Below, one piece after another: positions 16,398-48,219 of a stretch of 64,000 nt of DNA. Position 1 is the stretch's first letter. The number at the start of each line of letters is the position of its first letter. The notes below the pieces were generated by a model that saw only the letters and a program-made list of their open reading frames with translations, was not told the DNA's origin and did not search any database. The position numbers and the translations under genes were made by a program. The DNA is from Methylophilus sp. Leaf416 (lineage in GTDB: Bacteria; Pseudomonadota; Gammaproteobacteria; Burkholderiales; Methylophilaceae). Location: assembly GCF_001424665.1 (NCBI RefSeq), contig NZ_LMQS01000002.1:434001-498000 (forward strand). The letters run 5' to 3'.

Positions 16398-16405
16398 CTT
16401 TTGCC

Positions 16406-16511: not shown

Positions 16512-16513
16512 GC

Positions 16514-16840: not shown

Positions 16841-16849
16841 TGAAAGGCC

Positions 16850-17503: not shown

Positions 17504-17514
17504 GCTTTAAGCCC

Positions 17515-17620
17515 TAACGTTTGAAGTAAGGGGCTGGCGACATTGGTGGCTCAACCCTCGTTATTAATAAACATATCATAGAAGCACCTTTTCGCCAGTC
17601 CCGCTTGACTGATGGGTTAG
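17515..17620 (-). repeat. attC 6
   Basis: Long-form attC (about 106 bp), nearly identical to attC 4 and attC 11. Cores are TAACGTTTGAAG and GGGTTAG. It ends the cassette of the gene at 17623. Confidence 0.92.
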
Positions 17621-17622
17621 CC

Positions 17623-17877
17623 TTAGGACTCATTGCTTAAATCAATATCGGTTGGAAACTGCTGCCATAACTTGAAGTTTTCTTCAGAACATTCATGAGC
17701 TTGTGATGAAGATATTTCACGAGCGTTCCAAGCAGTATTTATATGATGATACAGATGCGCCATAGAGACATACAGCTCTCCCGAGCTATAACTTTGGTCG
17801 GTTTTTATTTCATTAATCATACGAGCCAACTCTTCCGAAGCCTCTTGTAAGTGAAATAAAGTATGTTCTCGATTCAT
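17623..17877 (-). CDS. Cassette gene: small helical protein, unknown
   Basis: The 84-aa protein appears all-helical: MNREHTLFHLQEASEELARM then SSGELYVSMAHLYHHINTAW-NAR. The H-x2-HH-x2-N-x-AWNAR segment has the look of a conserved core shared by small cassette proteins of unknown role. No signal peptide or TM. Confidence 0.68.
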   Translation of the reverse strand: MNREHTLFHLQEASEELARMINEIKTDQSYSSGELYVSMAHLYHHINTAWNAREISSSQAHECSEENFKLWQQFPTDIDLSNES

Positions 17878-17884
17878 GATGGGC

Positions 17885-17990
17885 TAACGTTTGAGATAAG
17901 GGGCTGGCGAAAATGGTGGCACAGCCATTGTTATTAAAATTGTATTCATCGAAGAGCGTTCTCGCCAGTCCCGCTTGATGGATGGGTTAG
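17885..17990 (-). repeat. attC 7
   Basis: Long-form attC (about 106 bp) with cores TAACGTTTGAG and GGGTTAGGG. It has an AT-rich middle with ACAGCCATTGTTATTAAAAT and supplies the stop codon of the gene at 17987. Confidence 0.92.
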
Positions 17991-18529
17991 GGTTGATTTT
18001 TAAGTGTAATTTCGCCAAAAGTCATATATACAATTGGACCACCTGTTTTTGCCCGATATGCACCATTTGCCGAATCCAAGCGAGCAGCCAATGCTACAAA
18101 TTCCCATGCTTTTTCTTCGGAGCTAAATATTTTGGGTTTAGTAAACGTAGAGATTTTGTTTTTCACCCCATATGCTTTAACCAAATTAGCCGCCCGCTTG
18201 AGTTTATCGTCAACTGAGGGATTGTCCCAGCCCCAAAGAAAGGAACCATCGTTAGGGTCATAAGTGCCAATTATTTGAACTGGAGCGGATGCTATAACTT
18301 TGTTAGGGAATATGAAGAGAATTAAGCCATTATCTTGATCAACTGACCAAGTTTTTTCTTTTCCAAAATGCCATGTGGCGCTGTGCGCTGAAGTTTGTTG
18401 CTTCAGCCCTTCAATACTTTGACGAATATATAGTTGAACAGCATCAGGGTAAATTTCACTGGAGTTTGTATTTGAAGTTGCAAATAAACCAATTAACCCA
18501 AGTAGTAGTTTTTTCATGTATTTGCTCAT
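17987..18529 (-). CDS. Cassette gene: exported protein, unknown
   Basis: The 180-aa protein has an N-terminal signal peptide (MKKLLLGLIGLFATSNTNSS) and no further TM, so it should be periplasmic. The mature part has NGLILFIFPNKVIASAPVQI and WGWDNPSVDDKLKRA segments, which suggest a compact beta-rich domain that I cannot name. The stop codon is provided by attC 7, and the upstream TTAGGG of attC 8 is positioned as ribosome site. Confidence 0.7.
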   Translation of the reverse strand: MSKYMKKLLLGLIGLFATSNTNSSEIYPDAVQLYIRQSIEGLKQQTSAHSATWHFGKEKTWSVDQDNGLILFIFPNKVIASAPVQIIGTYDPNDGSFLWGWDNPSVDDKLKRAANLVKAYGVKNKISTFTKPKIFSSEEKAWEFVALAARLDSANGAYRAKTGGPIVYMTFGEITLKNQP

Positions 18530-18535
18530 AAACCC

Positions 18536-18640
18536 TAACGTTTGAAGTAAGGGGCTGGCGACACTGATGGCTAAACCCTCGTTATTAATAACATTTCATA
18601 AAAGCTCTTTTTCGCCAGTCCCGCTTGATGGATGGGTTAG
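18536..18640 (-). repeat. attC 8
   Basis: Long-form attC (about 105 bp) with cores TAACGTTTGAAG and GGGTTAG and a middle close to those of attC 4 and 6 (CCCTCGTTATTAATAA). It ends the cassette of the gene at 18646. Confidence 0.92.
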
Positions 18641-18645
18641 AGAAG

Positions 18646-19185
18646 CTAATTTCTAAGCACAAGTAAATCAGCATAATCAGTTTGCAGGCTTTTTAATTTT
18701 TGTGCATAGTTTGACCATGGCTTCAATTGGAATTTATTTATTAATTTAATTAACAAATCGATTTCTTCATCTTCAAAGTCCGTGTCGTATTCTTTCGATT
18801 CAAGCTCTTTTAGGAACTTATTGTAATTAAATACGATGTCATCTAAGCGATGGTATCCAGTTTTGCAACCAAGGGATAAAAAATCAATTAGATTTTCACC
18901 TACTATCACATTTGGATTATCGTCACCAGAGTTTGGTATTGTCATCACAACAGGTGAATTTTCGTTAAACTCATCTAATTTACCCAACAAACTAAAATAG
19001 ACCCCATCAACACCTGTTATAGCAAACGGTAGTTGGTCAGGTAATGCACACCAATCAGAATCCCAAGACTCATAGGGTATATTATCCTCTAATAGAATCA
19101 ATCCGACTGGCTCAAAAGCCTCAAAGGGGTAATCAATGTTTGTAGCTTTAGAGAGTTCATAAAGCTTTTTGAGCGTACTATTCAT
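18646..19185 (-). CDS. Cassette gene: SUKH-like (SMI1/KNR4-type) protein, tentative
   Basis: The 179-aa acidic protein has an N-terminal helix, an ITGVDGVYFSLLG segment, and PVVMTIPNSGDDNPNVIVGE followed by LIDFLSLGCKTGYH. This order (a strand with a G-x-D turn, then MTxP, then a helix FLxLG) recalls SUKH-superfamily proteins, many of which are toxin-immunity proteins. The match is from memory of the pattern and not from a search. Ribosome site AGGGA comes from attC 9. Confidence 0.6.
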   Translation of the reverse strand: MNSTLKKLYELSKATNIDYPFEAFEPVGLILLEDNIPYESWDSDWCALPDQLPFAITGVDGVYFSLLGKLDEFNENSPVVMTIPNSGDDNPNVIVGENLIDFLSLGCKTGYHRLDDIVFNYNKFLKELESKEYDTDFEDEEIDLLIKLINKFQLKPWSNYAQKLKSLQTDYADLLVLRN

Positions 19186-19195
19186 TTTTATTCCC

Positions 19196-19251
19196 TAACG
19201 TGTTGACATAAGGGGCGCGCTTTAGCGGGTCCCGCTTGATGGATGGGTTAG
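19196..19251 (-). repeat. attC 9
   Basis: Short-form attC (about 56 bp), TAACGTGTTGACATAAGGGG with the hairpin GCGCGCTTTAGCGGGTCCC and GGGTTAGG. It is related to attC 3. It supplies the TAA stop of the gene at 19248. Confidence 0.9.
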
Positions 19252-19574
19252 GCATTTTTGAGTTCATTGCATACACCCTCGAAGCGATCAAAATACTGCG
19301 AACATAATTCATTTTCTGACATAGAGAAAGTGTCCAATGTGTATTGGAGCGACAAGTCTCTTGCAAGTGTGCATGCCTCGCTTTGAAAAGGTGGATACAA
19401 CTCGCTTGCAGTTCTCAAGTCGCCTGCATTTCTCATTCCGTAGTCCGCGACCCAAACACAGTAAATTAGCTTTTCATATGACGTGAGGCTTGCGGCGCCG
19501 TTTTGTGCTTCTTTACGGATTATGATATCGCCCGTTTCAATGAGCCATGTTTCATATTCGAAAGTCGATGTCAT
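19248..19574 (-). CDS. Cassette gene: small soluble protein, unknown
   Basis: The 108-aa protein (MTSTFEYETWLIETGDIIIR...) has a helical segment LTSYEKLIYCVWVADYGMRN and an AGDLRTASELYPPF motif. No signal peptide; the hydrophobic stretch is too short for a TM. It looks like a family of small helical proteins seen in cassettes and near toxin loci, but I cannot name it. Its stop codon lies in attC 9. Confidence 0.66.
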   Translation of the reverse strand: MTSTFEYETWLIETGDIIIRKEAQNGAASLTSYEKLIYCVWVADYGMRNAGDLRTASELYPPFQSEACTLARDLSLQYTLDTFSMSENELCSQYFDRFEGVCNELKNA

Positions 19575-19583
19575 TCAAATGCC

Positions 19584-19689
19584 TAACGTTTGAGATAAGG
19601 GGCTGGCGAGGATGGTGGCACAGCCGAGGTTATTAAAATTTTTTTCATAGATGCTTGTTTTCGCCAGTACAGCTTGATGGATGGGTTAG
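19584..19689 (-). repeat. attC 10
   Basis: Long-form attC (about 106 bp) with cores TAACGTTTGAG and GGGTTAG. One arm reads CGCCAGTACAGCTTGA instead of CGCCAGTCCCGCTTGA, a two-base divergence that weakens the paired stem. It supplies the stop of the gene at 19686. Confidence 0.9.
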
Positions 19690-20024
19690 AGCGCATTTTT
19701 GCCCCAATGGATTATTGCAAACACACCAATAACTGCTAAGGGTAATAATGTAGCCAGTAGCCAAAATGGACTAGAGTTTCTAGGTATGTTTGAAACTGGC
19801 TTATTAGAGTTATTTTCAATGTGAAATGACAAAATATATGGGTTGGATTCAGAGCCAATATTAATTGAAGTAACTTGTGTTGGCCATTCAGTAGTTTCAG
19901 TGTGAATTGGAGCTTTCAAAAGCTCGGATAACTGCTGAAGTTGAGTAGTGCTTCCGATTACCATCATCCCTTTTTCTCGCCCTGTATATTCATGGGCGCG
20001 GAATTTCAACTCTGTGGCTTTCAT
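19686..20024 (-). CDS. Cassette gene: C-terminally anchored membrane protein
   Basis: The 112-aa protein has a soluble N-terminal part (MKATELKFRAHEYTG...) and one C-terminal TM helix (FWLLATLLPLAVIGVFAII). I chose ATG 20024 because codons further upstream belong to attC 11. No family recognised. The TAA stop is provided by attC 10. Confidence 0.66.
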   Translation of the reverse strand: MKATELKFRAHEYTGREKGMMVIGSTTQLQQLSELLKAPIHTETTEWPTQVTSINIGSESNPYILSFHIENNSNKPVSNIPRNSSPFWLLATLLPLAVIGVFAIIHWGKNAL

Positions 20025-20035
20025 GATTTGTGCTC

Positions 20036-20141
20036 TAACGTTTGAAGTAAGGGGCTGGGGACAGTGGTGGCACAACCCTCGTTATTAATAAACATTTCAT
20101 GAAAGCACCTTATCGCCAGTCCCGCTTGACTGATGGGTTAG
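20036..20141 (-). repeat. attC 11
   Basis: Long-form attC (about 106 bp), nearly identical to attC 4 and 6 except for GGGGCTGGGGAC in one arm. The gene of its cassette (20097-20465) reads 45 bp into it before meeting a stop. Confidence 0.92.
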
Positions 20142-20465
20142 ACTAAGACTTTGGTTGGTTTCACATGGATGATTATTTACCACAGTGAACGAGGCACCTC
20201 GCTCTCGTAAAATACGCCGCATTCGGCTTGCAATTCTAACGCTCCACACCCCAATGTATTTTTCACCGCTAATGTTTCGAGCAGCGTAACCACCAAAAAA
20301 GACTTCAAATTCAGCCTCGGGTATGTATGTCTCAACAAAAGAACGAAGACCCCTCTGCAGCGTGGGTTGCGAGGCACCTTCCTTAAACATGCGTTCTTTG
20401 AACAGAAATAGCTGACCAACTCTACTTGAGCTAGGTTCTGACTTTGTTTTAGATAAAGGCCACAT
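20097..20465 (-). CDS. Cassette gene: basic protein reading into its attC
   Basis: The 122-aa basic protein contains EAEFEVFFGGYAARNISGEK and SVRIASRMRRILRERGASFT segments. The last 14 or so residues (LTHQSSGTGDKVLS) are encoded by attC 11, so the native stop codon has been lost or was never present. No signal or TM. No family known. The start ATG 20465 lies just before attC 12. Confidence 0.6.
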   Translation of the reverse strand: MWPLSKTKSEPSSSRVGQLFLFKERMFKEGASQPTLQRGLRSFVETYIPEAEFEVFFGGYAARNISGEKYIGVWSVRIASRMRRILRERGASFTVVNNHPCETNQSLSLTHQSSGTGDKVLS

Positions 20466-20471
20466 GTCGTC

Positions 20472-20526
20472 TAACGTTTGAATTAAGAGGCGCGCTTTGG
20501 CGCGTCCCGCTTGAATGATGGGTTAG
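20472..20526 (-). repeat. attC 12
   Basis: Short-form attC (about 55 bp): TAACGTTTGAATTAAGAGGC, hairpin GCGCGCTTTGGCGCGTCCC, GGGTTAGG. The gene at 20483 is translated through most of it. Confidence 0.9.
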
Positions 20527-20707
20527 GTTTTGCTAATTCAGAGTTGAGTGTCAGCTTAGCCGTACACTGATATAAACCAAATAAAAAACCTGCTAGTACA
20601 AAAATGGTTATTGCAATCGGGATACTTTGATGTACTTTCCGACCGGGATTCTGTTCCTCTTCTGTAAGGCGTACTATTTGACCCCATTTATTGATATGCC
20701 ATTTCAT
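20483..20707 (-). CDS. Cassette gene: single-TM protein with attC-encoded tail
   Basis: The 74-aa protein has one TM helix (IPIAITIFVLAGFLFGLYQC) after a charged N-terminus. Its C-terminus PNPSFKRDAPKRAS is the translation of attC 12, a tail type typical of cassette proteins that read into the attC. The true product may therefore be shorter in function. Unknown role. Confidence 0.6.
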   Translation of the reverse strand: MKWHINKWGQIVRLTEEEQNPGRKVHQSIPIAITIFVLAGFLFGLYQCTAKLTLNSELAKPNPSFKRDAPKRAS

Positions 20708-20721
20708 TATGGATTAAGACC

Positions 20722-20775
20722 TAACGTTTGAGTTAAGGGGCGCCGTTAGGCGTCCCGCTTGAATGATAGGTTAGC
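20722..20775 (-). repeat. attC 13
   Basis: Short-form attC (about 54 bp): TAACGTTTGAGTTAAGGGGC, hairpin CGCCGTTAGGCGTCCC, GGTTAGCC. It is close to attC 18 and 19. It supplies the stop of the gene at 20771. Confidence 0.9.
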
Positions 20776-21289
20776 CAACAAATGATAGTACGCCGTCATT
20801 GCGAGAAGCAGATTTGACAAAAAAATCTACAAGCCCACGATAATTATCTAAAATGTAATCAAGACCCTCTTGACCATCTCTAACCCATATTTGTGGATAT
20901 ATCTCAAACTTGTCCATTTCCTCGGGATTAAAGCGAGCACTAAAATCTTCAACGCTTAAAGCTTGAAGAGAGCTTGAAATAGATTTGACTACACTTGGAT
21001 TTAGGAACCTAGCTGGACCATAGCCTAAATCCTCGCCAATTTCTTCACCACCGAAAATTACTTGTAATAATGGGTTTTTAGCAGACTCAGTTTGCTCTGG
21101 AAATTTAAATTCAGGTTCCCCAGTAAGCATGAAATTAATAGCATGCCAAGATTTATCGAGGTCAATAGAGTGTGGTTCCTCATTGTTGCTTTCATGCTGA
21201 AAGTAAACCTCATTCACTGGGTCGGATTCAATTTTTACAGCATCGATCATATTTTCTGGGACTGCAACATAACAACAAACCATGCCCAT
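20771..21289 (-). CDS. Cassette gene: DUF1877 (YfbM-like) protein
   Basis: The 172-aa acidic protein matches the DUF1877/YfbM pattern: MGMVCCYVAVPENMID at the start, DLDKSWHAINFMLTG, then GGEEIGEDLGYGPARFL and a C-terminal LDYILDNYRGLVDFF segment. The family is common and soluble, and its function is unknown. Unlike most of the array it has a strong ribosome site of its own (AAGGAG, 6 nt before the ATG). The stop lies in attC 13. Confidence 0.85.
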   Translation of the reverse strand: MGMVCCYVAVPENMIDAVKIESDPVNEVYFQHESNNEEPHSIDLDKSWHAINFMLTGEPEFKFPEQTESAKNPLLQVIFGGEEIGEDLGYGPARFLNPSVVKSISSSLQALSVEDFSARFNPEEMDKFEIYPQIWVRDGQEGLDYILDNYRGLVDFFVKSASRNDGVLSFVG

Positions 21290-21311
21290 ATTTTTCTCCT
21301 TATTTATTGGC

Positions 21312-21367
21312 TAACGTTTGAATTAAGGGGCTGGCTTTTAGCCAGTCCCACTTGAATGAAGGGTCAG
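21312..21367 (-). repeat. attC 14
   Basis: Short-form attC (about 56 bp): TAACGTTTGAATTAAGGGGC, hairpin TGGCTTTTAGCCAGTCCC, GGGTCAGCC. The outer core has GTCAG in place of GTTAG. It supplies the stop of the acetyltransferase gene. Confidence 0.88.
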
Positions 21368-21825
21368 CCATAGCTTGCCACCATGGTTTGATAATGCATA
21401 CCATTGAATGCTTCGGGTGGGTCAATGATCTTGAACCCAAGACGTTCATAAACAGGAACCGCAAACAACGATGAGCGTACTGTAAGCGAATTGCCTAGCA
21501 ACCCATTGCGTGAAGCGGAGTGCCATAGTTGTTTTCCAACGCCTCCCATTTGATGATTGGGATGAACAAAGAAGTATTTCACATGACTTCTGTCGCGAAT
21601 GGTTAGAACCCCGACAAGCATTTGACCTACTTTAGCCACTAGCCAAACCATTTGCTCGGCCTGAAGTTGGTTAGCAATTTGGTGTGATGCTACGCTCTCC
21701 TTGAACCATTCAGGGCATGGCTGTTCAGGCGTGAAGCAACAAATGAGCGATGTTGAATAAATCAACTCGGCAATAGCGGAGGCATCGGTTGCTAACGCGG
21801 GGCTTATTTCGATAGGGTTTGTCAT
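21364..21825 (-). CDS. Cassette gene: GNAT family N-acetyltransferase
   Basis: The 153-aa protein has the GNAT fold. It has strand beta-4 (MLVGVLTIRDRSHVKYFFVH), the acetyl-CoA loop with HPNHQMGGVGKQLW (the Q/R-x-x-G-x-G/A motif as QMGGVG), and the late VPVYERLGFKI motif. The substrate is unknown; the family includes aminoglycoside, protein and small-molecule acetyltransferases. ATG 21825 (MTNPIEIS) is chosen since codons upstream belong to attC 15. Confidence 0.85.
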   Translation of the reverse strand: MTNPIEISPALATDASAIAELIYSTSLICCFTPEQPCPEWFKESVASHQIANQLQAEQMVWLVAKVGQMLVGVLTIRDRSHVKYFFVHPNHQMGGVGKQLWHSASRNGLLGNSLTVRSSLFAVPVYERLGFKIIDPPEAFNGMHYQTMVASYG

Positions 21826-21828
21826 GGC

Positions 21829-21893
21829 TAACGTTTGAGATGAGAGGCTTGACCCGGCTTGCCGGGGCAAGTCCTCTCGATTGAAGGGTTGGG
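21829..21893 (-). repeat. attC 15
   Basis: An attC of about 65 bp with a different hairpin: TAACGTTTGAGATGAGAGGC, TTGACCCGGC-TTGCC-GGGGCAAG, then GGGTTGGGC. The outer core is GTTGGGC. It ends the TPR-like cassette. Confidence 0.86.
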
Positions 21894-21895
21894 CG

Positions 21896-22357
21896 TCACT
21901 TCCAGAACTGCCATGACTTCTTCGGCCCTTCGATACCTTTGGCCTTGCTTTGTAGAAAGCGCAGGTATTTTGGGTCTTGGTCTTTGAAAATCTCAGTTCC
22001 CGCGCCCATGTACGCCCGCATAAGCTCGTCGGCCGCACGATCAAGGACGCCTAGTTCGAGCTGGCACTGACCTAGCCGAAGGTGCAGGAAGGGATTGCCA
22101 GTTGAATTTGGGCAGCGCATTGCGGTGGTTAGGTTGTCTTTGCCTGCCGCGTAGTCTCGACCGAGGAAATTGGCATCGCCAATAGCCGCGAGCAGCCAAG
22201 TAGCAGCTTCCCATTCGGTCTTTGGTTCGGGCAAGAGATCCCAGGCCTGCCAATACACGGGAATCGCTTCCGAATACTTTCGCTCGTTGGCCAAAGCGTC
22301 ACCTTCGGCGGATAGACGCTGAATATCGGAGTGAGTGGCTTCTGACAGTTCAGACAT
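21896..22357 (-). CDS. Cassette gene: TPR-like protein
   Basis: The 153-aa soluble protein is made of helical pairs with TPR character: ALANERKYSEAIPVYWQAWD, then GRDYAAGKDNLTTAMRC, and LRLGQCQLELGVLDRAADEL. It ends in WQFWK. TPR proteins mediate protein contacts, and no enzymatic motif is visible. It is more GC-rich than its neighbours. Its attC hairpin also differs, so this cassette may have a separate origin. Confidence 0.75.
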   Translation of the reverse strand: MSELSEATHSDIQRLSAEGDALANERKYSEAIPVYWQAWDLLPEPKTEWEAATWLLAAIGDANFLGRDYAAGKDNLTTAMRCPNSTGNPFLHLRLGQCQLELGVLDRAADELMRAYMGAGTEIFKDQDPKYLRFLQSKAKGIEGPKKSWQFWK

Positions 22358-22379
22358 TTCGCTTCGGCCCTAGTGGCGC

Positions 22380-22486
22380 CCAACGTTTGAGATAAGGGGC
22401 TGGCGACAATGGTGGCTCAACCTTCGTTTCTAAAAATTCTATCAGCGAAGTGCGCTTTCGCCAGTCCCGCTTGATGGATGGGTTAG
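22380..22486 (-). repeat. attC 16
   Basis: Long-form attC (about 107 bp) with cores CAACGTTTGAG and GGGTTAGGC and a middle CAACCTTCGTTTCTAAAAAT. It supplies the stop of the gene at 22483. Confidence 0.9.
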
Positions 22487-22956
22487 GCATAGTTATAACT
22501 GGGTTTCTCAAGATATTCGCCCCACGGATCGCTGCCATTGAAGCCGCCCACATAGAGCACTTTATTGTCTCGAACAATCCACTCCATGCCATGCTCGGGC
22601 TCCCAATCGCAGTTGAGCTCAAAGTGAGCAACAGGTTGCCCGGGAATCTCTTCATTGGGAATTATTAAGGTACTAGGTATGACAAGCGGCAACACATCTC
22701 GCGGTGAGTTGAATTGCTTTGGGTCTTCGCCCACCATTTCAAGGAAGTCGTTGCAATAACGAATGGACGCTAGGCATAAATCGTCTATGATTTCAGAATC
22801 AAGAGCGTTGAAGTATTCAACACACTTTTCAACATAATTAATGCCTGACGCATCTTCGACTGCGAAAGGTACGTACCGATCAAAGAGCGTGAGAAATGCC
22901 TCACCCTGAAGAGGCCAAAAGCCCTCGGTCGAAACGTTCTTGAGAAGTGGTTTCAT
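22483..22956 (-). CDS. Cassette gene: DUF6985/DUF2004-like protein, tentative
   Basis: The 157-aa acidic protein contains ELNCDWEPEHGMEWIVRDNK and VLYVGGFNGSDPWGEY. This C-terminal WEPEHG...YVG pattern is typical of a family of small proteins that I associate with DUF2004/DUF6985. Members are often cassette-borne and resemble immunity proteins. No signal or TM. The family name is from memory. The stop is provided by attC 16. Confidence 0.65.
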   Translation of the reverse strand: MKPLLKNVSTEGFWPLQGEAFLTLFDRYVPFAVEDASGINYVEKCVEYFNALDSEIIDDLCLASIRYCNDFLEMVGEDPKQFNSPRDVLPLVIPSTLIIPNEEIPGQPVAHFELNCDWEPEHGMEWIVRDNKVLYVGGFNGSDPWGEYLEKPSYNYA

Positions 22957-22964
22957 GTTATGCC

Positions 22965-23023
22965 TAACGTTCGAATTAAGGGGGCTGGCTTTCGCCAGCG
23001 TCCCGCTTGATGGATGGGGTAGG
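22965..23023 (-). repeat. attC 17
   Basis: Short-form attC (about 59 bp): TAACGTTCGAATTAAGGGGG, hairpin CTGGCTTTCGCCAGCG, then GGGGTAGGC. The outer core GTAGGC carries a variant base compared with GTTAGGC. Confidence 0.86.
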
Positions 23024-23031
23024 CCTTAACA

Positions 23032-23358
23032 TTACATGGCCTTTAACAAGGAGGTGATTAGTTGAACAAAACCCCTACCATTTAAGTGAGACTCACCATT
23101 AAACAAACTATAAACAAACATAGTGACGAAAAATATTGCCAACCCCCAAATAGCTACCTTAGCAATATTACGTTGAGTAGGGCTTAAGTTTTGAGCGCTT
23201 AGTGGTTTTGTGAAATCAATCAAAAGAGCCCCACCAAGAAATGCCAAGAAGCAAGCAAAAGCAAATATACCCAAACTAAATGGGGCGGCGATTAGAACTA
23301 TTGTTGCAAACGACAGGCATATTGCGTTTATTAAACCTTTAAATATTTTCCAAATCAT
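23032..23358 (-). CDS. Cassette gene: three-TM membrane protein
   Basis: The 108-aa protein has three hydrophobic helices: AICLSFATIVLIAAPFSLGI running into FAFACFLAFLGGALLI, and AIWGLAIFFVTMFVYSLF. Short charged loops separate them. No family recognised; membrane proteins of this kind make up about a third of the array. Confidence 0.68.
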   Translation of the reverse strand: MIWKIFKGLINAICLSFATIVLIAAPFSLGIFAFACFLAFLGGALLIDFTKPLSAQNLSPTQRNIAKVAIWGLAIFFVTMFVYSLFNGESHLNGRGFVQLITSLLKAM

Positions 23359-23372
23359 TTGGTTGTGTTGCC

Positions 23373-23425
23373 TAACGTTTGAATTAAGGGGCGCTGTTAG
23401 GCGTCCCGCTTGAATGATGGGTCAG
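23373..23425 (-). repeat. attC 18
   Basis: Short-form attC (about 53 bp): TAACGTTTGAATTAAGGGGC, hairpin CGCTGTTAGGCGTCCC, GGGTCAG. It ends the cassette of the gene at 23436. Confidence 0.9.
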
Positions 23426-23435
23426 TGTTGTGAGT

Positions 23436-23717
23436 TTATTGAGCATGATTTAAGACCCACAAGTAAGGTGCGAGAAAAATTGCAAGCAGACTGAATGATT
23501 GCAGAGTTTTAGTTAGCACTGTGTTGGCATGTTGCTGATTGAGCCATATAAACAACACAAAGAGAAGAATTGGCATTCCGATTATCAACGTCCAGCGGAG
23601 CTCCGCGACACTTGAGATTTCAACCTTTAAGAAAGACAAAAGTGACTCAGCGAAAATTCCGGCGCTCATACTTAGTGCGGTCAGAACAATAGTGAAGTTT
23701 CGAACGAATGTGCTCAT
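23436..23717 (-). CDS. Cassette gene: small membrane protein
   Basis: The 93-aa protein starts MSTFVRNFTIVLTALSMSAG and has three hydrophobic segments (TIVLTALSMSAGIFAESLL, LRWTLIIGMPILLFVLFIWL, FSLLAIFLAPYLWVL). ATG 23717 is preferred to an in-frame ATG six codons earlier, which lies against attC 19. No family recognised. Confidence 0.66.
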   Translation of the reverse strand: MSTFVRNFTIVLTALSMSAGIFAESLLSFLKVEISSVAELRWTLIIGMPILLFVLFIWLNQQHANTVLTKTLQSFSLLAIFLAPYLWVLNHAQ

Positions 23718-23731
23718 AAAATATGTGACGC

Positions 23732-23786
23732 TCAACGTTTGAATTAAGGGGCGCCGTTAGGCGTCCCGCTTGAATGATAGGTTATG
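23732..23786 (-). repeat. attC 19
   Basis: Short-form attC (about 55 bp): CAACGTTTGAATTAAGGGGC, hairpin CGCCGTTAGGCGTCCC, GGTTATG. It is the attC of the first cassette (gene at 23790), the one nearest the expected attI position. Confidence 0.9.
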
Positions 23787-24516: not shown

Positions 24517-24564
24517 TGGTGGCCCCTCTGTGAGTCGAACACAGCACCAACGGATTATGAGTCC
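24517..24564 (-). repeat. att core 2: tRNA-Ile2 3' part (boundary islands 1/2)
   Basis: These 48 bp are identical to the 3' part of the tRNA gene at 60076-60154, from the CCA end to the anticodon. It has arm Y on its left and arm X on its right, so it is a hybrid junction between two tandem elements. The 5' half of the tRNA is absent, so it cannot be a functional tRNA. Confidence 0.95.
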
Positions 24565-24680
24565 ACAACATTGATGCACTATGCCTTCCATTACGCAACA
24601 ATACATGCACTTAGATTGCATTACGCAACTAAGTAGACTTGTCATCTAACTATAGCGTTGAACTTTTGTTGTACCTCTGT
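24565..24680. repeat. Arm X, copy 2
   Basis: This copy is near-identical to 14842-14957. The decamer ATTACGCAAC occurs twice, exactly 30 bp apart (24590-24599 and 24620-24629), a pattern expected of integrase arm-type sites. It ends CCTCTGT and is followed by unrelated sequence. Confidence 0.85.
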
Positions 24681-40529: not shown

Positions 40530-40539
40530 CTTTTAGTCA

Positions 40540-40618
40540 ACCCGTCGCACCCGACGACCTGCCCCAACCCATATACTGCAAGGAATGGCGACAAGTCGTC
40601 GAGTCGTCAGGTGGGCTT
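40540..40618. repeat. GTCG-rich palindromic repeat R1
   Basis: This about 78-bp element has CCCGTCGCACCCGACGACCT at one end and GGCGACAAGTCGTCGAGTCG plus TCAGGTGGG at the other. It is GC-rich, in contrast to its surroundings. Related copies lie at 44850-44931 (same orientation) and 50905-50985 (inverted). It lies between the 3' ends of convergent genes (small protein and integrase). Confidence 0.75.
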
Positions 40619-42627: not shown

Positions 42628-44106
42628 CTAGTAAAGGTCACCATCTATGTCGTCATTAGTAATGATGATCTGGCGCCGCTTGCCTCGTTTAAATTGAATG
42701 CCTATGCCCTGAGCTTCTAAAGATGCAACCAGAGGCATCAAGCGCTTCGACATGGCAATTGCATTGTCTGGCCACTCACGCGACCGACCAATACGGGTTA
42801 CAGCAAACGCGCTCAAATCTTCATAAAGTTTTGTAGGCGTCCCAATCCACGGCCTTTCTTGTAGTTTGGCAAAAGCTAATATTTCGCTGCCAAGCAAATT
42901 GTCCTGCAGTGCATCTAGCTGACCATTTACAATCTGATCAGAGTAGTACTTTTGGTATGTACCTTCCGGCACACCTTGAACAACTTCCATTGCTGCCAAC
43001 CACTTCGAGAACTCAGCCATGCGTTCTGCTTCTTTAACCTTAATATCTGGCAGCACAGCAAATACCTTTGCAATCAAATCCAGTAACCCAAAATAAATAT
43101 CGGGATAGTCTTGATGCAACTGCCCCTGTAATTCAGCATCGGTTTGTCGCATTGCTTTGCTGATAGGTAACAGCTCAATCGTCAAACAACGCTGTGCCAG
43201 ATCACTTTGGTTGATGAAGGGGTGCAACCCGTTAAGTATCACCGCTCCATGCAACCGAATTGCCATCACTTCAGCATCGGTATACAACTGCCTTACAGTA
43301 ATCGATCCCCCTGTAGCAGCTATGCATAAAGCATCTGCCATCACAGGTGAAAGAAACCGCAAGTTGTCATAAGCCAATACGTGACTGGACTGACAAGCAA
43401 TTGCTAATTCCTTTTGATTGCTTGGGAAAGTCCGTACCCCAATACTTCCGGGATCTGCAAACTTCAACAACAGCTTAGACATCACTGTTTTCCCTGTTCC
43501 CTGCGACCCGCTCAACACTAATATAGGGAACTTACTATTCTCAACTTTCGGTTGTGCCATTGAGAAAGTCAGCCAGGCCAAGATCAAGATTTTGGACTCC
43601 GGTGTCATATTTAGGTATTTATCGAATTTCGATAAATCGCCTGAAGACACATCTTCAGGAACAGAAATACCACCCATATGTGGGTTCCTAACAAATACTG
43701 ATTGGGAACCGGAATTCAACATCTCAACACGACCGGGTGTCACTGCAATACGCCTATGTCTCTCATCACCAAGATCAATTTCTATGCCATTTGGTATTTG
43801 AGCAACTCGATACCATACTGAAGCTGTAAAACCATGTGCATGAGCAGCTGACTTCAAATCTTCATTAATGTCATCAAGCTCTTTGCTCTTTAATCGATGC
43901 CCTGATTCGGCATATTTCCTGCGGATATTACTATTTGAAAACACCCCTCCTATCCGATCCCCAGTTGGATTAGAAGTGTCAGGCCTTACCGCAAACTCCA
44001 CGCCGTCTTGGCTTCGAAACGTTATAAGGTTTAACTTCTTGTTTGTAGTTGAGTTTTCTAGCCGTTCTAAATCTTGGCTATAGATACTGCTGATTAGGTT
44101 TTGCAT
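42628..44106 (-). CDS. AAA+/SF3-type ATPase of replication module
   Basis: The 492-aa protein has a Walker A motif at about residues 200-207 (GSQGTGKT) inside a LVLSGSQGTGKTVMSKLLL context. A Walker-B-like HVLAYDNLR and a sensor-1 stretch (AVILNGLHPF) follow. This matches the C-terminal helicase half of phage and satellite primase-helicase proteins; the N-terminal part (1-150) has no visible primase motif. AAGGAG directly precedes ATG 44106. In such elements the protein drives autonomous replication after excision. Confidence 0.78.
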   Translation of the reverse strand: MQNLISSIYSQDLERLENSTTNKKLNLITFRSQDGVEFAVRPDTSNPTGDRIGGVFSNSNIRRKYAESGHRLKSKELDDINEDLKSAAHAHGFTASVWYRVAQIPNGIEIDLGDERHRRIAVTPGRVEMLNSGSQSVFVRNPHMGGISVPEDVSSGDLSKFDKYLNMTPESKILILAWLTFSMAQPKVENSKFPILVLSGSQGTGKTVMSKLLLKFADPGSIGVRTFPSNQKELAIACQSSHVLAYDNLRFLSPVMADALCIAATGGSITVRQLYTDAEVMAIRLHGAVILNGLHPFINQSDLAQRCLTIELLPISKAMRQTDAELQGQLHQDYPDIYFGLLDLIAKVFAVLPDIKVKEAERMAEFSKWLAAMEVVQGVPEGTYQKYYSDQIVNGQLDALQDNLLGSEILAFAKLQERPWIGTPTKLYEDLSAFAVTRIGRSREWPDNAIAMSKRLMPLVASLEAQGIGIQFKRGKRRQIIITNDDIDGDLY

Positions 44107-44209
44107 CCTTCTCCTTATTAGAAGTTTTAAATGGATGCTCACTATAAGATGAAGGGTATCCTCCCCCACAAGAGTACCCCAATAAGATTTATGGGGTAGT
44201 GTGCCTAAG

Positions 44210-44821
44210 TTATAGTTTTATTTTAGCTTCATATTTGATTTTATTGGTGTCACTCAATCTATCCCAAGCATGCTTAAAAACAGTGGATCCAGTAAATAAA
44301 CCTTTACCATTCAATATAGCTAAAACTTTTTTCTTCACTCCACCCTCTCTGGTATACGGAGGAAGATTTAATGGGTCGTAACCTAGTTTAGCAATTTCAT
44401 TTAAAATTGCTTTTTCTTGCCTTTTAAGGTGATCGCAAGTTTTCAGATTTTGTAGGACAGCCACACTTGTCAAAAAGTCGTCAGCAAGTCTTATCCTATT
44501 AGTTGCAGCCCATGCAGGTAATTTATTTGCTCTAACTTTATTCTGGTGCAAATTTAGCTTGCCACTGTCAATGGCATCAAGCAGAAGTTCATGATAGGCC
44601 AAACCCTTTTTGGCCAAGTCTTCATCATCATTATCATAAAAAATCTGTAAATAATCCTCTAATTCATACGTCTCTTCATGATTACCAAACTCATCATAAG
44701 TAACAAAAGGATAATCAGCTAAAGACTTACCCAAAAGAACAATCACAGCTTCCTCAATTGTTAAAAGCGGACTCAAAATCACACGATTGGCTCCCGCCTC
44801 CTCATTATAAATAATTGGCAT
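44210..44821 (-). CDS. Hypothetical protein (203 aa) upstream of AAA+ ATPase
   Basis: The acidic soluble protein (MPIIYNEEAGANRVILSPLL...) has an acidic segment (YELEDYLQIFYDNDDEDLAK) and a lysine-rich C-terminus. The RLSDTNKIKYEAKIKL tail is amphipathic. No family recognised. AGGAAAA lies before ATG 44821. Its position before the ATPase suggests a role in the same replication or control module. Confidence 0.6.
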   Translation of the reverse strand: MPIIYNEEAGANRVILSPLLTIEEAVIVLLGKSLADYPFVTYDEFGNHEETYELEDYLQIFYDNDDEDLAKKGLAYHELLLDAIDSGKLNLHQNKVRANKLPAWAATNRIRLADDFLTSVAVLQNLKTCDHLKRQEKAILNEIAKLGYDPLNLPPYTREGGVKKKVLAILNGKGLFTGSTVFKHAWDRLSDTNKIKYEAKIKL

Positions 44822-44849
44822 TTTTTTCCTAAACTTTTTGTTTGTGAAT

Positions 44850-44931
44850 TAACCCGACGCACCCGACGACACGTCGCCAGCCCAAGTAGTATATGGCAGC
44901 TAATTCGGCGTCGGTTACGTCAGGTCGTCAG
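44850..44931. repeat. GTCG-rich palindromic repeat R2
   Basis: This about 80-bp element reads ACCCGACGCACCCGACGAC, ACGTCGCC, then TATGGC, then CGGCGTCGGTTACGTCAGG and TCGTCAG. It matches R3 (50905-50985) in inverted orientation over its full length and R1 (40540-40618) more loosely. It separates the replication block from the small exported protein and antirestriction genes. Confidence 0.78.
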
Positions 44932-44998
44932 TTTTAGGGCAACTAACTTGAAAATTCCCAATTCACCATATTTCATCTTGAGAATTTCCTCGATAGCA

Positions 44999-45286
44999 TC
45001 ATTTCTTAATTACACCATATAGCTTGTGATACTGAATATTGCCAAATTTATCAGTCTGGTAAATCCGATCACCCTTCATTTGATACTGCTGCTTATGGTG
45101 TTGCTTATTTCCAAAAGAATCAGCCTCAATAACCCGTCCGTTACTCTGAACAACATAAGAAGGTTTGTGATATTGAATATTACCTGTTGATTCTGTCTGG
45201 TAAATTTTTGACTCTTCCGCAAAGGCAGGGCAAGCAAATATAAACATTCCAATGCTAGCCGCTATATGTAAATATTTTGTATTCAT
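44999..45286 (-). CDS. Small periplasmic protein with FGN-x-QYHK repeats
   Basis: The 95-aa protein has a signal peptide (YLHIAASIGMFIFACPAFA). The mature part is three imperfect repeats built on G/FGN-x-Q-Y/H-HK: STGNIQYHKPSYVVQ, SFGNKQHHKQQYQMK and KFGNIQYHKLYGVIK. It is basic and histidine-rich, so it may bind nucleic acid, metal or a surface. No known function. GGAGGG precedes ATG 45286. It is 16 bp downstream of the antirestriction gene. Confidence 0.7.
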   Translation of the reverse strand: MNTKYLHIAASIGMFIFACPAFAEESKIYQTESTGNIQYHKPSYVVQSNGRVIEADSFGNKQHHKQQYQMKGDRIYQTDKFGNIQYHKLYGVIKK

Positions 45287-45301
45287 AATCAACCCTCCGG
45301 A

Positions 45302-45712
45302 TTAATCTATCGCTCTAGAAATTGCCATCGCTTCACCATGCTCCAGTGCAAATTCACGTAGCGCGTGATAATGAGCTGAGCAGAGTTTACTTAGTTCGGG
45401 GTTATCAGAAAAACTCAAATGACTATAGGCATACAAGCTAACTACCAATCCAAATGCATCAGCTGACACCTGCCCCTCATGACCATTTTCGCTAATGAAG
45501 CTAAATGGTTCTGCTGAGTCTGGTGCTATGTAAAAACCGCCATTGCTCAGTGTGTAGAAATGCCAATATGCACCATGATAATCTTTGCACAGGTGGCGAG
45601 CGAAATAATAAACAACAGGCTCAATTTTGAATGGGAAGTATTGCTTGAATAGTTTTGGTGTAATTAATAGTCGCTGGTGTTCCGGTACTAAGGTTGCGGT
45701 AATTGATGCCAT
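45302..45712 (-). CDS. Antirestriction protein, ArdB/KlcA family
   Basis: The 136-aa protein carries the family hallmark YYFARHLCKDYHGAYWHFYT, followed by LSNGGFYIAPD and a helical C-terminus. ArdB/KlcA proteins block type I restriction enzymes during entry of plasmids and conjugative elements. It is preceded by an unusual 90-bp nested hairpin and a T-rich stretch (45722-45833) with only a weak ribosome site, which suggests regulated or single-strand-dependent expression. Finding it within an element that also encodes restriction genes is notable. Confidence 0.92.
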   Translation of the reverse strand: MASITATLVPEHQRLLITPKLFKQYFPFKIEPVVYYFARHLCKDYHGAYWHFYTLSNGGFYIAPDSAEPFSFISENGHEGQVSADAFGLVVSLYAYSHLSFSDNPELSKLCSAHYHALREFALEHGEAMAISRAID

Positions 45713-45721
45713 GGGGTACTT

Positions 45722-45833
45722 TCAAAAAAAAATAAAAATAAGCCCCACCTCGCTAAACCAATAGACGTGACAATGCCTCAGCAATAAAGCTGATTTGTTA
45801 TCGTTGTCATATCCGGTGGTTTAGTGAGGTGGG
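45722..45833 (-). promoter_or_regulatory. Long nested hairpin with U-tract before ardB
   Basis: A 17-bp outer stem (45744-45760 with 45817-45833, one G-T pair), a middle 8-bp stem (45768-45775 with 45802-45809) and an inner stem TCAGC/GCTGA (45778-45793) nest in one structure. On the minus strand it is followed by TTATTTTTATTTTTTTTT, and 10 nt later by the ardB start. It could be an attenuator-terminator or a single-stranded-DNA promoter of the kind used by conjugative plasmids. Confidence 0.75.
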
Positions 45834-45861
45834 AGTGGTAAAGAAAAGGAACAGAAGGGGT

Positions 45862-46014
45862 TTACTGCAATATGTTGATGTATGGCTGCTCGTAGTCAAA
45901 ACCTGACATTAATTTAGCCTGGTCAGCAACTGCCAGTGGAATAGCCTCATCCGGGATATCCCATGACAAAACTGTTTCTAGTGCTTCAAGGTAGTTTGGG
46001 TGGTTGATACACAT
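45862..46014 (-). CDS. Small acidic protein (50 aa)
   Basis: The frame encodes MCINHPNYLEALETVLSWDI and ends YEQPYINILQ. AAGGAG lies 8 nt before the ATG. The acidic, helical composition is typical of small plasmid leading-region proteins. It overlaps the 5' neighbour by 29 bp, and the ribosome site is the main support. Confidence 0.6.
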   Translation of the reverse strand: MCINHPNYLEALETVLSWDIPDEAIPLAVADQAKLMSGFDYEQPYINILQ

Positions 46015-46186
46015 TTAATTTTCTCCTTAATTTGAAATAGCCAACAAACAAAACAACGAAGAACAGGGTTATAAATACAAATGGATAAACAAGCGCGATG
46101 AGAGTTAACCCAATCACACCAATCATTCGGGTAGATTTGAAAACGAGACAAAACAGCCCAATTACGAGCAGCGTTAAAAGAGCCAT
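45986..46186 (-). CDS. Small two-TM membrane protein
   Basis: The 66-aa protein has two hydrophobic helices (ALLTLLVIGLFCLVFKS, and VIGLTLIALVYPFVFITLFF running into VVLFVGYFK) and a basic tail. ATG 46186 has GGAG about 8 nt upstream; the longer frame to 46264 has no better site. No family recognised. The gap 46187-46373 on its right shows nothing clear. Confidence 0.5.
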   Translation of the reverse strand: MALLTLLVIGLFCLVFKSTRMIGVIGLTLIALVYPFVFITLFFVVLFVGYFKLRRKLNVYQPPKLP

Positions 46187-46373
46187 CAGAAAACTCCAAA
46201 ATTCACTGAGATTCAGTGGTGTAAGGTGGAACGGTGAGAATTTATTTCGGCATAATTTCGACATATACCTGAGGTTGAAACAGCGAAGAGTTTGAGACTT
46301 GACTGGCTTAGCGCTATAGGAGGGACAGGCTATGGAGTTGCGTACTTATTCTCCGTAGTAGCGCTGATGGTGA

Positions 46374-46850
46374 CTATTGCGTGGATTTAGGGGAGTTAGA
46401 CTTCTTGGCGGACTCTGGTTTTAATATGACAGTCTTGCGACCATCGGGGATGTGATCGACTTTGATATCGGCACCGGATTTGATGAGTGCGTCTATTGAT
46501 TCAATGACAGGCTTGGGATCACAACTGACATACACACGCGGATTGTCGATATCTCTTTCAACGAGTCCAAGTGAGTAAATAGCAGCCCACAGAAAGCCAA
46601 TGGTGTTTGAGCTTTTACCCTCAGTGATGCCTTGAAGTGTGAACGATGTTAATGGGGTTTTCGCACTATCTAGCTTATCCAGGATAGTTTGCAATTTGAC
46701 CCACTCTGGACTGAAGTAGCCTCCACCCTCGTTCTCGGCCACTCGGATGATGATGGCACCCTGCTCGTCGATTCCAATGTGAAACTTGATTTTGTATTTG
46801 GCAGATAGATTGAGGCATTCTGCCACCTTGACTACGCGAATTGCTTTCAT
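46374..46850 (-). CDS. Hypothetical soluble protein (158 aa)
   Basis: The protein begins MKAIRVVKVAECLNLSAKYK. It has a hydrophilic alpha/beta character, with GFLWAAIYSLGLVERD in the middle and a basic C-terminal tail (KKSNSPKSTQ). ATG 46850 is chosen since AAGGA lies 8 nt upstream; a longer frame overlaps the next gene. No family recognised. It belongs to the minus-strand accessory block of island 3. Confidence 0.6.
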   Translation of the reverse strand: MKAIRVVKVAECLNLSAKYKIKFHIGIDEQGAIIIRVAENEGGGYFSPEWVKLQTILDKLDSAKTPLTSFTLQGITEGKSSNTIGFLWAAIYSLGLVERDIDNPRVYVSCDPKPVIESIDALIKSGADIKVDHIPDGRKTVILKPESAKKSNSPKSTQ

Positions 46851-46933
46851 AATTAATCCTTGTTTGATTATTAACTGAATAAAGAATAAGTGCATTGCAC
46901 CCTTCATATAAGATGGAATGTTTATCGCAGACA

Positions 46934-47404
46934 CTAAGCTTGATTGATAGCCAGATGCTCTTCTACTCTGGCCTTGGTCCATAACGTCTTTGGCACATAG
47001 AAGACAGGTCCCCCTGCGTTATTCCAGATGTTGCAAAAGGTCACATAGCATTCATCGAGTTTATGGCAGACATCCCAGACCATTGGCTGGTCAGTGACAT
47101 TCGGCCAATCTCCATGTTTTTCAGCCCATGCCGGATTGAAACCTTTGATGCTAGTTAAGTCAGCCTCGGATTCACAAATATATGCATCGCCACCTAGGTA
47201 TTTATTAAAAGAGAACTCTGCCGCAAGTTGGCCAGATAGCCAGATGAGATTGTTAGAGTTGATATCAGTAGAACTGTGAATATTAGGCGGGATGTCATCG
47301 CATGCACTCATCAGTGTGTAAGCGATATCCTGGACAATTGAAAAAGCTAGTTTATCGGCTTGGTAAAGTTGAAATGCTTGTTTGAAAGTACATATTTCTA
47401 TCAT
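46934..47404 (-). CDS. Hypothetical soluble protein (156 aa)
   Basis: The protein (MIEICTFKQAFQLYQADKLA...) is acidic and Trp-rich (DWPNVTDQPMVWDVC, FCNIWNNAGGPVFYVPKTLW). No signal or TM. AAGGAG precedes the ATG with good spacing. No family recognised. Its start lies just left of a terminator hairpin that closes the lipoprotein genes. Confidence 0.62.
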   Translation of the reverse strand: MIEICTFKQAFQLYQADKLAFSIVQDIAYTLMSACDDIPPNIHSSTDINSNNLIWLSGQLAAEFSFNKYLGGDAYICESEADLTSIKGFNPAWAEKHGDWPNVTDQPMVWDVCHKLDECYVTFCNIWNNAGGPVFYVPKTLWTKARVEEHLAINQA

Positions 47405-47423
47405 AAGACTCCTTTGTATAGGC

Positions 47424-47450
47424 GAAAAAAAACCGCCTTGTCAGGGCGGC
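47424..47450 (-). terminator. Rho-independent terminator
   Basis: On the minus strand CCGCC pairs with GGCGG around CTGACAA, followed by TTTTTTTT. It lies just downstream of the lipoprotein gene at 47475, so it ends that transcript and separates it from 46934-47404. Confidence 0.88.
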
Positions 47451-47474
47451 TATCGATACTTCTGCTTTTTATGT

Positions 47475-47858
47475 CTACTTCACCATTAGGTTAATTATCT
47501 TTATATCAATATTGGGGCAACTCAAACCACCGTACTTGCTGCGATCTGCATCTTTCATAAGCAAGTGAACCATACATTTGGATGAGCCTCCTGCTAAGAC
47601 TGGCGAACAACTGAGCATATATTGCTCCAACGTTGCGTTTGTTTCTTTCTGCACAGTCAGTAGCGTTCCATTAATGAGCGAAATGTTCTTATCTGAAGTA
47701 TTGCGAAAAGTTGCTCCTAAGATTGCACAGCCGCGTTTTGTAACCTCGATTGTGTTTCCACTACTCAATGCGAAAGTTCTTGTTGTGACATCGAAATTTC
47801 CCATAGATGCGCATCCTGAGATAGTGGCAATCAATGCCATCAAAATACTTAATTTCAT
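47475..47858 (-). CDS. Small lipoprotein
   Basis: The 127-aa protein has a lipoprotein signal (MKLSILMALIATISGCAS). The mature part has four further cysteines (KRGC, LSC, SKC, LSC), suggesting disulphides in the periplasm. No family recognised. AAGGGA precedes the ATG. It is 22 bp downstream of another lipoprotein gene and shares its transcript, ending at the terminator at 47424. Confidence 0.75.
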   Translation of the reverse strand: MKLSILMALIATISGCASMGNFDVTTRTFALSSGNTIEVTKRGCAILGATFRNTSDKNISLINGTLLTVQKETNATLEQYMLSCSPVLAGGSSKCMVHLLMKDADRSKYGGLSCPNIDIKIINLMVK

Positions 47859-47880
47859 TACTTCCCTTTCTTGATTTAGG

Positions 47881-48219
47881 TTACTTTGGTATTCCAGTGA
47901 TTTGTTCCATCGTGTTGTCTATTTCCTCAAAACTATTTAAGTCTTCTTTTGAACAAGGTGCATGCTTCATTGATTCCACGATCCAAACACCATTTTCCTT
48001 TTTAAGAAAAGCAACATCCCACCCTGTGTAGCCACCAAAGCTATTTTTGGCATTCCAACTAATGCATGCGTATTGATTGCCATCGCTGGCGACATAATCT
48101 TTGAAGATTGCGGAGGTGGGATCTTTGAGGTGATTTTGAACAACTTCTTCTACAGCTGACTTTTGACTGCATCCAGATAGAAATAGAGCAGTTAGCATTG
48201 AGAACCAAGCGGATTTCAT
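47881..48219 (-). CDS. Small lipoprotein
   Basis: The 112-aa protein has a signal and lipobox (MLTALFLSGCSQ). The body is QNHLKDPTSAIFKDYVASDG, then NSFGGYTGWDVAFLKKENGV. The LKDPxSAxF-KD pattern is frequent in small phage and plasmid lipoproteins. It is divergent from the XRE repressor gene, and its promoter region overlaps two perfect operators, so it is probably controlled by that repressor. Confidence 0.78.
   Translation of the reverse strand: MKSAWFSMLTALFLSGCSQKSAVEEVVQNHLKDPTSAIFKDYVASDGNQYACISWNAKNSFGGYTGWDVAFLKKENGVWIVESMKHAPCSKEDLNSFEEIDNTMEQITGIPK

What the first reader, a model, noticed from the sequence alone, without database searches (positions are those of the whole stretch)
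45722..45833. Large nested hairpin in front of the antirestriction gene: possible single-stranded-DNA promoter or attenuator
Three nested stems spanning 90 bp, the outer one 17 bp long, are followed on the ardB strand by a long T-rich tract and then the start codon. Conjugative plasmids express antirestriction genes early from folded single-stranded promoters (Frpo/ssi type). A similar device would let this element protect itself directly after entry as single strand. Alternatively it is a terminator that must be relieved for expression.
Basis: partly seen in the sequence, partly recalled or inferred. Interest (0 to 1): 0.65.

Follow-up and report, generated by a model that had tools for sequence, protein, structure and literature searches.

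The report
Transcription brake before an antirestriction gene
In front of an antirestriction gene lies a folded element whose conserved core looks like a place where RNA polymerase pauses or stops; much the same core sits behind the replication gene of IncFII-type plasmids, so it is probably a shared expression brake and not a promoter that works on single-stranded DNA.

Summary
The hairpin is real: 17-bp outer arms (45744-45760 / 45817-45833), two inner stems, a T-rich tract, then ardB (45302-45712, minus). The ardB-strand RNA folds far better than shuffles (z -7.8, 0 of 200). It is also conserved. A 56-nt core model finds it before ardB in 22 of 40 related loci (20 of them trained the model). 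In 187 Methylophilaceae genomes the only 12 matches above 35 bits all precede ardB (11 are the training sites). The core also follows repA in IncFII-type plasmids (R100, two Lelliottia) and an unclassified gene in Vibrio plasmids. Conservation peaks where a hairpin-stabilised RNA-polymerase pause is defined (G-11, G-10, Y-1, G+1; hairpin 11 nt back). A C-rich, G-poor, Rho-site-like stretch precedes it, and the hairpin lies 59-100 nt after an upstream stop codon. In the window the outer stem plus U-tract also makes an intrinsic terminator, 31 nt before ardB. Best reading: an intercistronic pause/termination element (attenuator) that ardB transcription must pass. The single-stranded-promoter reading is not supported: no promoter boxes seen, two relaxase families absent from this genome, the same core behind repA. 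Pausing, Rho dependence and regulation are inferred, not shown. No Rfam match.

The parts
45862..46014 (-). Small upstream ORF of 50 aa; similar small ORFs (by eye) precede the element in 17 of 24 ardB leaders, another gene in the other 7
45794..45873 (-). C-rich, G-poor (rut-like) stretch upstream of the core hairpin: 26 C, 7 G in 80 nt
   Evidence: top 0.22% of 80-nt windows, both strands of the 64-kb window
45817..45833 (-). 5' arm of outer stem (CCCACCTCACTAAACCA)
45758..45813 (-). Conserved 56-nt core (model R1, 36.0 bits; the window is a training sequence)
45778..45793 (-). Core hairpin TCAGC-TTTATT-GCTGA
45766..45777 (-). Pause-consensus stretch GGCATTGTCAC|G: G-11 45777, G-10 45776, Y-1 45767, G+1 45766 (predicted pause, not measured)
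   Evidence: consensus from passages of PMC12288461
45744..45760 (-). 3' arm of outer stem (TGGTTTAGCGAGGTGGG)
45724..45741 (-). T-rich tract (TTATTTTTATTTTTTTTT) after the outer stem: intrinsic-terminator-like
45302..45712 (-). ardB-type antirestriction gene, 136 aa
   Evidence: PF03230

Best explanation
It is an RNA-level transcription control element lying between two genes of one transcription unit. After ribosomes finish the small upstream gene, about 70 nt of C-rich, G-poor RNA emerges (a likely loading site for Rho). RNA polymerase then meets a hairpin-stabilised pause whose predicted RNA 3' end is at window 45767. Polymerase is either released there or just downstream (by Rho or, in the window, at the U-tract behind the outer stem) or escapes and transcribes ardB. 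If it escapes, the G-rich 3' arm can pair with the C-rich 5' arm, which would hide the Rho site and form the large stem. Only 31 nt lie between stem and ardB start, too few for a promoter, so ardB expression should depend on read-through. Shown here: the structure, its conservation, its position after a stop codon and before ardB, the match to the pause consensus, the C>G bias, and the core shared with the region after repA in IncFII-type plasmids. Inferred: one transcription unit, pausing, termination, Rho dependence, rut masking and any regulation. I give about 0.6 to an RNA-level pause/termination element and about 0.4 to Rho in particular.
For: Conservation before ardB: 22 of 40 loci at 25 bits or more, L041 counted although its ardB is split by an insertion; 20 of the 22 trained the model. 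In 187 Methylophilaceae genomes, 12 of 14 matches exceed 35 bits and all 12 precede ardB; 11 of these are the training sites, so the new fact is that no other strong site exists there. Most conserved of the 20 columns 3' of the hairpin: 47, 48, 50, 37, 38 = -1, +1, +3, -11, -10. In 29 sites: G-11 28, G-10 28, Y-1 29, G+1 29; the definition (G-10, Y-1, G+1, duplex 11-12 nt back) is from passages of PMC12288461. C exceeds G in the 80 nt upstream in 24 of 24 leaders, top 3% of windows in 20. Hairpin 59-100 nt after an upstream stop codon in 24 of 24. Core just after repA in R100, 23.5 bits, E 3.4e-7 in 1.2 kb, roughly calibrated, where a 1988 title reports for plasmid R1 a rho-dependent terminator (title in a reference list). 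Core helix covariation score reached by 3 of 500 shuffles.
Against: No expression data. Intrinsic terminators before ardB are not clearly enriched: 15 of 39 versus 61 of 246 control ORF upstreams, and most leaders lack a U-tract. The outer stem is strong only in some lineages: mean z 1.1 against shuffles, 5 of 24 negative; mean swap rank 0.28 on the sense strand and 0.24 on the other, 0.5 being chance. Neither wobble counts (G-T 43, A-C 58; shuffles 55 and 76) nor swaps favour the RNA strand over its complement, so strand is argued from position and consensus. The sites are not independent: several loci share an assembly, three share a contig. Matches near 25 bits also turn up without ardB (viral loci L162, L190), so the weakest of the 22 (L022, 25.9 bits, a training row) rests on position. 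The conserved stretch is more specific than a pause needs, which leaves room for a bound protein.
Confidence: 0.58

Rival explanations
1. Plain intrinsic terminator of the upstream genes, with ardB served by weak read-through or a cryptic promoter; no regulation.
For: In the window a 17-bp GC-rich stem plus T-rich tract; similar stem plus CTTATTTT in L011 and L218.
Against: 31 nt between stem and ATG leave no room for a promoter; the U-tract is missing in most of the 24 leaders while the core is kept.
Confidence: 0.2
2. Site for a sequence-specific protein (an ops-like loading site for a NusG/RfaH-type factor, or ArdB or another element protein acting on its own leader).
For: Conservation beyond the pause positions (columns 40, 41, 49, 51, 52); same core in another context.
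Against: Only one NusG-domain gene found in this genome; I did not search for other partner proteins.
Confidence: 0.15
3. Single-strand DNA promoter (Frpo/ssi type) active on entering single-stranded DNA.
For: Folded region directly before an antirestriction gene; Frpo logic reported for plasmid leading regions (PMC11541004, passages).
Against: No promoter boxes seen; PF03432 and PF08751 absent from the genome; core also behind repA.
Confidence: 0.04
4. Single-strand priming site (G4-type, DnaG).
For: Lies near repA in IncFII-type plasmids, which carry such a site (recalled).
Against: No match of the model in the 1-kb stretch with the G4 complementary-strand origin; the CGGAGATAC stretch that resembles G4 lies about 580 nt further on in R100 and L220, apart from the core.
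Confidence: 0.03

Closest known systems
CIS region of IncFII plasmids (between repA and oriR; R1/R100; name recalled)
   Same: Same core: hairpin, GG(A/C)..., CACGTCTG, shortly after a stop codon; C-rich, G-poor neighbourhood (R100: 31 C, 11 G in the 80 nt after the core; 26 C, 16 G before it). A rho-dependent terminator required for RepA cis-action is reported for R1 (1988 title only, seen in a reference list).
   Different: CIS follows a replication initiator and precedes an origin; here the element precedes a gene to be expressed and has long complementary arms.
Hairpin-stabilised (his-class) RNA-polymerase pause
   Same: Hairpin about 11 nt before the predicted RNA end; G-10, Y-1, G+1.
   Different: Pausing not measured; no leader peptide of the his kind was sought.
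Rho-dependent leader attenuators
   Same: C-rich, G-poor RNA followed by a pause-like site, between translated regions.
   Different: No ligand, sensor or leader-peptide logic identified; Rho effect untested.
Frpo/ssi single-strand promoters
   Same: Large fold before an anti-defence gene.
   Different: No -35/-10 seen in the fold; not tied to a leading region here.

Membership tests
Frpo/ssi single-strand promoter | -35 and -10 boxes within the folded strand | tested here: not met
   Consensus scan of 43500-48000, both strands: none in 45720-45840; a simple scan
Frpo/ssi single-strand promoter | Lies in the leading region of a conjugative element | tested here: inconclusive
   Relaxase families PF03432 and PF08751 absent from the genome; other relaxases, oriT and T4SS not searched
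Frpo/ssi single-strand promoter | Transcription from single-stranded template | not testable with these tools
   -
G4-type ssi (DnaG priming site) | Similarity to the G4 complementary-strand origin | tested here: not met
   R1, filters off, no match at E 5 in phage G4 3500-4500
Hairpin-stabilised pause | G-10, Y-1, G+1 | tested here: met
   28, 29 and 29 of 29 sites; L016, L029, L042-L044 and L047, weaker look-alikes, were not counted
Hairpin-stabilised pause | RNA hairpin 11-12 nt before the RNA 3' end | tested here: met
   10-12 nt in 29 of 29; the script only tried hairpin ends within that range
Hairpin-stabilised pause | Measured pause | not testable with these tools
   -
Rho-dependent terminator | C-rich, G-poor rut stretch upstream of a pause | tested here: met
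   24 of 24 C>G; 20 of 24 in the top 3% of windows
Rho-dependent terminator | Termination depends on Rho | not testable with these tools
   -
Intrinsic terminator | GC-rich stem directly followed by a U-tract | tested here: met
   Met in the window, L011 and L218; most of the other leaders lack the U-tract
Any Rfam 15 family | Match to a covariance model | tested here: not met
   Window 40-52 kb and 11 relatives: four microRNA/sRNA matches, all below gathering scores and none at the element
IncFII CIS element | Core after repA, before oriR | tested here: not met
   Here it precedes ardB; the gene before it is a 50-aa ORF, not repA; only the core is shared

The most novel reading that the evidence does not exclude
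A transferable RNA-polymerase pause module of mobile elements, unknown to Rfam, placed just after a stop codon. Behind repA it would hold the polymerase so that a freshly made initiator acts in cis; in antirestriction operons the same module, with added C-rich and G-rich arms, would act as a gate that keeps ardB low in the settled state and lets it through when Rho or pausing factors are limiting, for instance right after entry.
Probability: 0.2. Interest if true: 0.75.

Novelty: new variant of a known kind. Interest (0 to 1): 0.5.

Why it matters
How antirestriction genes are kept low in the settled state and switched on when needed is, as far as I recall, known mainly for plasmid promoters. 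A conserved pause/termination core shared by ardB leaders (mainly of betaproteobacteria, plus a Parvibaculum MAG) and by IncFII-type replication regions would give one testable sequence for both, and a concrete test of how the IncFII cis-acting region works.

Tried and rejected
Intrinsic terminators as the common feature: 15 of 39 ardB leaders versus 61 of 246 control ORF upstreams, not convincing. Strand of action from wobble pairs and from swapped arms: no preference. G4-type priming site: taken as the main hypothesis after the plasmid matches (note), dropped. Miniature transposon or other repeat: single copy in the genome. attC site: the window's own attC-like array (14.9-23.8 kb) has other sequences, and the core model lists no match there. 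Known RNA family: none in Rfam. NusG/RfaH-type partner in this genome: only one NusG-domain gene. R1 on all 120 gave L162 (25.4 bits, inside an 842-aa open frame), L190 (25.5 bits, context not examined) and L212 (18.2 bits); none of the 120 holds ardB. A second pattern gave none. ArdB protein in viral contigs: one relative, L218, with the core before ardB. Order-wide search (300 genomes): apart from the window, 32 weak matches (20-27 bits); none of the 29 kept as loci has ardB within the stretch held. Of the 16 I looked at, several are ordinary intrinsic terminators followed by CGTCTG and others lie within open frames. Plasmid blastn with the L038 core: 14 records at chance-level E. Rows dropped: of 28 hand-cut cores, L016, L029, L039, L042, L043, L044 and L047 were left out of the model alignment A2.

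Full report
What is there. On the minus strand, in order: a 50-aa ORF (46014-45862), 28 nt, a large fold (45833-45744), a T-rich tract (45741-45724), and ardB (45712-45302; PF03230, E 7e-29). The fold is real and far from chance. The outer arms pair over 17 bp on the plus strand; on the ardB strand one pair is a C-A mismatch. The simple promoter scan found no sigma-70-like site in the fold on either strand, and 31 nt separate the stem from the ATG.

Relatives. One scan of GTDB genomes with the window's ArdB protein gave 40 loci, among them Methylophilus, Methylotenera, Nitrosomonas, Nitrotoga, Rhodocyclaceae and Methylococcaceae. Reading their upstream regions showed a shared core: TCCG-loop-CGGA, GGATTTTGCACGTCTG, with a pyrimidine-rich stretch before it and often a purine-rich one after. 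Model R1 was built from 21 cores with the 4-bp hairpin. At 25 bits or more it matches in front of ardB in 22 of 40 loci, and in L021 before another small ORF that precedes ardB. Twenty of the 22 were training sequences; L039 and L041 were not, nor was L021. The loci are not all independent: L020, L024 and L025 share a contig, and L017/L041, L018/L031 and L037/L039 share assemblies. In L041 the core precedes the 5' piece of an ardB split by an insertion. Weaker: L013, L016, L035 and L043 score 12-18 bits before ardB; the rest have no match there at E 5. Three loci begin less than 150 nt before ardB (L029, L048, L050). One ardB relative from viral contigs, L218, also carries the core (44.6 bits, not in training).

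Beyond ardB-selected loci. In the window's own genome the core occurs once; the next match is 16.9 bits. In 187 Methylophilaceae genomes there are 14 matches at E 1e-4 or better. The 12 above 35 bits all precede ardB, one of them the IS-split copy; the two at about 26 bits do not. Eleven of the 12 are the window and training loci met again, the twelfth is L041 (same scores; shared 60-mers), so this search adds no new site; it shows that no other strong site exists in those genomes. In 300 genomes of the order only the window's own match is strong. The core was not found at 11 other antirestriction loci: one IncP klcA, two E. coli K-12 regions and eight more, so it marks a subgroup.

A second home. 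blastn with a Methylotenera leader gave 417 plasmid records at E about 1-4 (413 Salmonella, 2 Vibrio, 2 Rhizobium); the 20 rows I saw, Vibrio and Salmonella, all fall on the core. The E-value is no evidence by itself, but the Vibrio tasmaniensis site then scores 40.5 bits with R1. It lies 13 nt after the stop codon of a 279-aa gene without Pfam or NCBIfam match. With the Vibrio core, 536 plasmid records match at E 10 or better, mostly Salmonella (422) and Vibrio (95). In two Lelliottia plasmids it follows repA, 18 nt after the stop in L220 and 255 nt in L221; both genes match RepA models of NCBIfam. In R100 the match starts at 9677 where repA ends at 9670, and scores 23.5 bits. This is the region known as CIS (name recalled). 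[quoted passage not shown] it is not held, so I cannot say that the mapped terminator is this hairpin.

What the core looks like. Of the 20 columns 3' of the hairpin in A2, the five most conserved are 47, 48, 50, 37 and 38. If the RNA end is put at column 47, these are -1, +1, +3, -11 and -10. The elemental pause signal is G-10, Y-1, G+1, and a duplex 11-12 nt upstream of the RNA end prolongs it (PMC12288461, passages; PMC6336406 seen in passages). Over 24 ardB leaders and 5 plasmid sites: G-11 28, G-10 28, Y-1 29, G+1 29, C+3 29 of 29, hairpin 10-12 nt back in all (the script tried only hairpin ends in that range). The 24 are the window, the 22 loci and L218. The hairpin itself has modest covariation (score reached by 3 of 500 shuffles; one pair changed on both sides, in three sequences).

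The surroundings. The 80 nt before the hairpin have more C than G in 24 of 24 leaders, in the top 3% of all windows of the locus (both strands) in 20 and in the top 1% in 13. In R100 the 80 nt after the core are in the top 0.3% of its stretch, the 80 nt before it in the top 3.7%. In all 24 leaders the hairpin lies 59-100 nt after the stop codon of an upstream ORF: a small protein of about 50 aa in 17, a gene ending near WNNAGG..YYVP in 7. The grouping is by eye, and in L028, L030, L033 and L041, where the script listed a nearer ORF in another frame, I took the ORF of these groups. Naked C-rich RNA after a stop codon followed by a pause is what a Rho-type intercistronic terminator needs.

The outer stem. 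It is strong in the window, L011 and L012, and shows by eye in others with different sequences (CCCTTTCTCC/GGAGAAAGGG in L014, CATATCC/GGATATG in L032). Overall support is moderate: mean z 1.1 over 24 against dinucleotide shuffles, 5 of 24 negative; mean rank 0.28 against arms of other lineages where 0.5 is chance, 0.24 on the other strand. Whole-leader fold z averages -2.3 on the sense strand and -1.6 on the other. Neither wobble counts nor swaps favour one strand. In the window, L011 and L218 the stem is followed by a U-tract; most others have none, so intrinsic termination looks like a local addition and the core is the conserved part.

Mechanism. I take it as a transcription pause/termination element between genes, probably Rho-assisted, that gates read-through into ardB. 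The pairing of the G-rich arm with the C-rich arm suggests that a polymerase that escapes hides the Rho site behind it; this last step is inference only.

The fold, its place and the T-tract are right. The single-strand promoter is not supported: Frpo elements carry -35/-10 in the fold (PMC11541004, passages), none is seen here; two relaxase families are absent from the genome; the same core sits behind repA. The terminator alternative is supported.

Novelty. No Rfam match. Literature searches on ardB/klcA with RNA motifs, attenuation or stem-loops (20 of 1,009 listed; 15 of 27; 12 of 13) showed no paper whose title or abstract opening describes this element; I did not read those papers. I file it as a new variant of a known kind.

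Noticed in passing
window 14957-23783: Array of 15-17 attC-like repeats with mostly one-ORF cassettes on the minus strand, flanked by 84-bp direct repeats (14794-14877, 24517-24600, 96% identical) that look tRNA-like by eye but are not called by ARAGORN. No integron integrase was looked for.
   Followed up: partly
window 40539-40558 and 44851-44870: 20-bp direct repeat, 95% identical, bracketing a tyrosine integrase and an ATPase-like gene: possible 4.3-kb integrative element ending just beside the ardB region.
   Followed up: no
L041 423-3363: ardB split by an insertion whose two ORFs look like a transposase and its ATP-binding helper (by eye); the core is kept in front of the 5' piece.
   Followed up: partly
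L065, L072, L074, L078, L090, L237: Ordinary intrinsic terminators in unrelated genomes whose T-tract is followed by CGTCTG or CGCCTG, the same letters as in the core: perhaps a general downstream termination or pause signal.
   Followed up: no
L026, L027, L023, L049: A separate hairpin (ending GTGCTGC) with a T-rich tract lies directly before ardB, in L023 and L049 without the core.
   Followed up: no
window 45862-46014: Small ORF (about 50 aa) upstream of the element with look-alikes in 16 other leaders, function unknown.
   Followed up: partly
L190 6778-6831: 25.5-bit match of the core model in a viral contig without ardB; context not examined.
   Followed up: no
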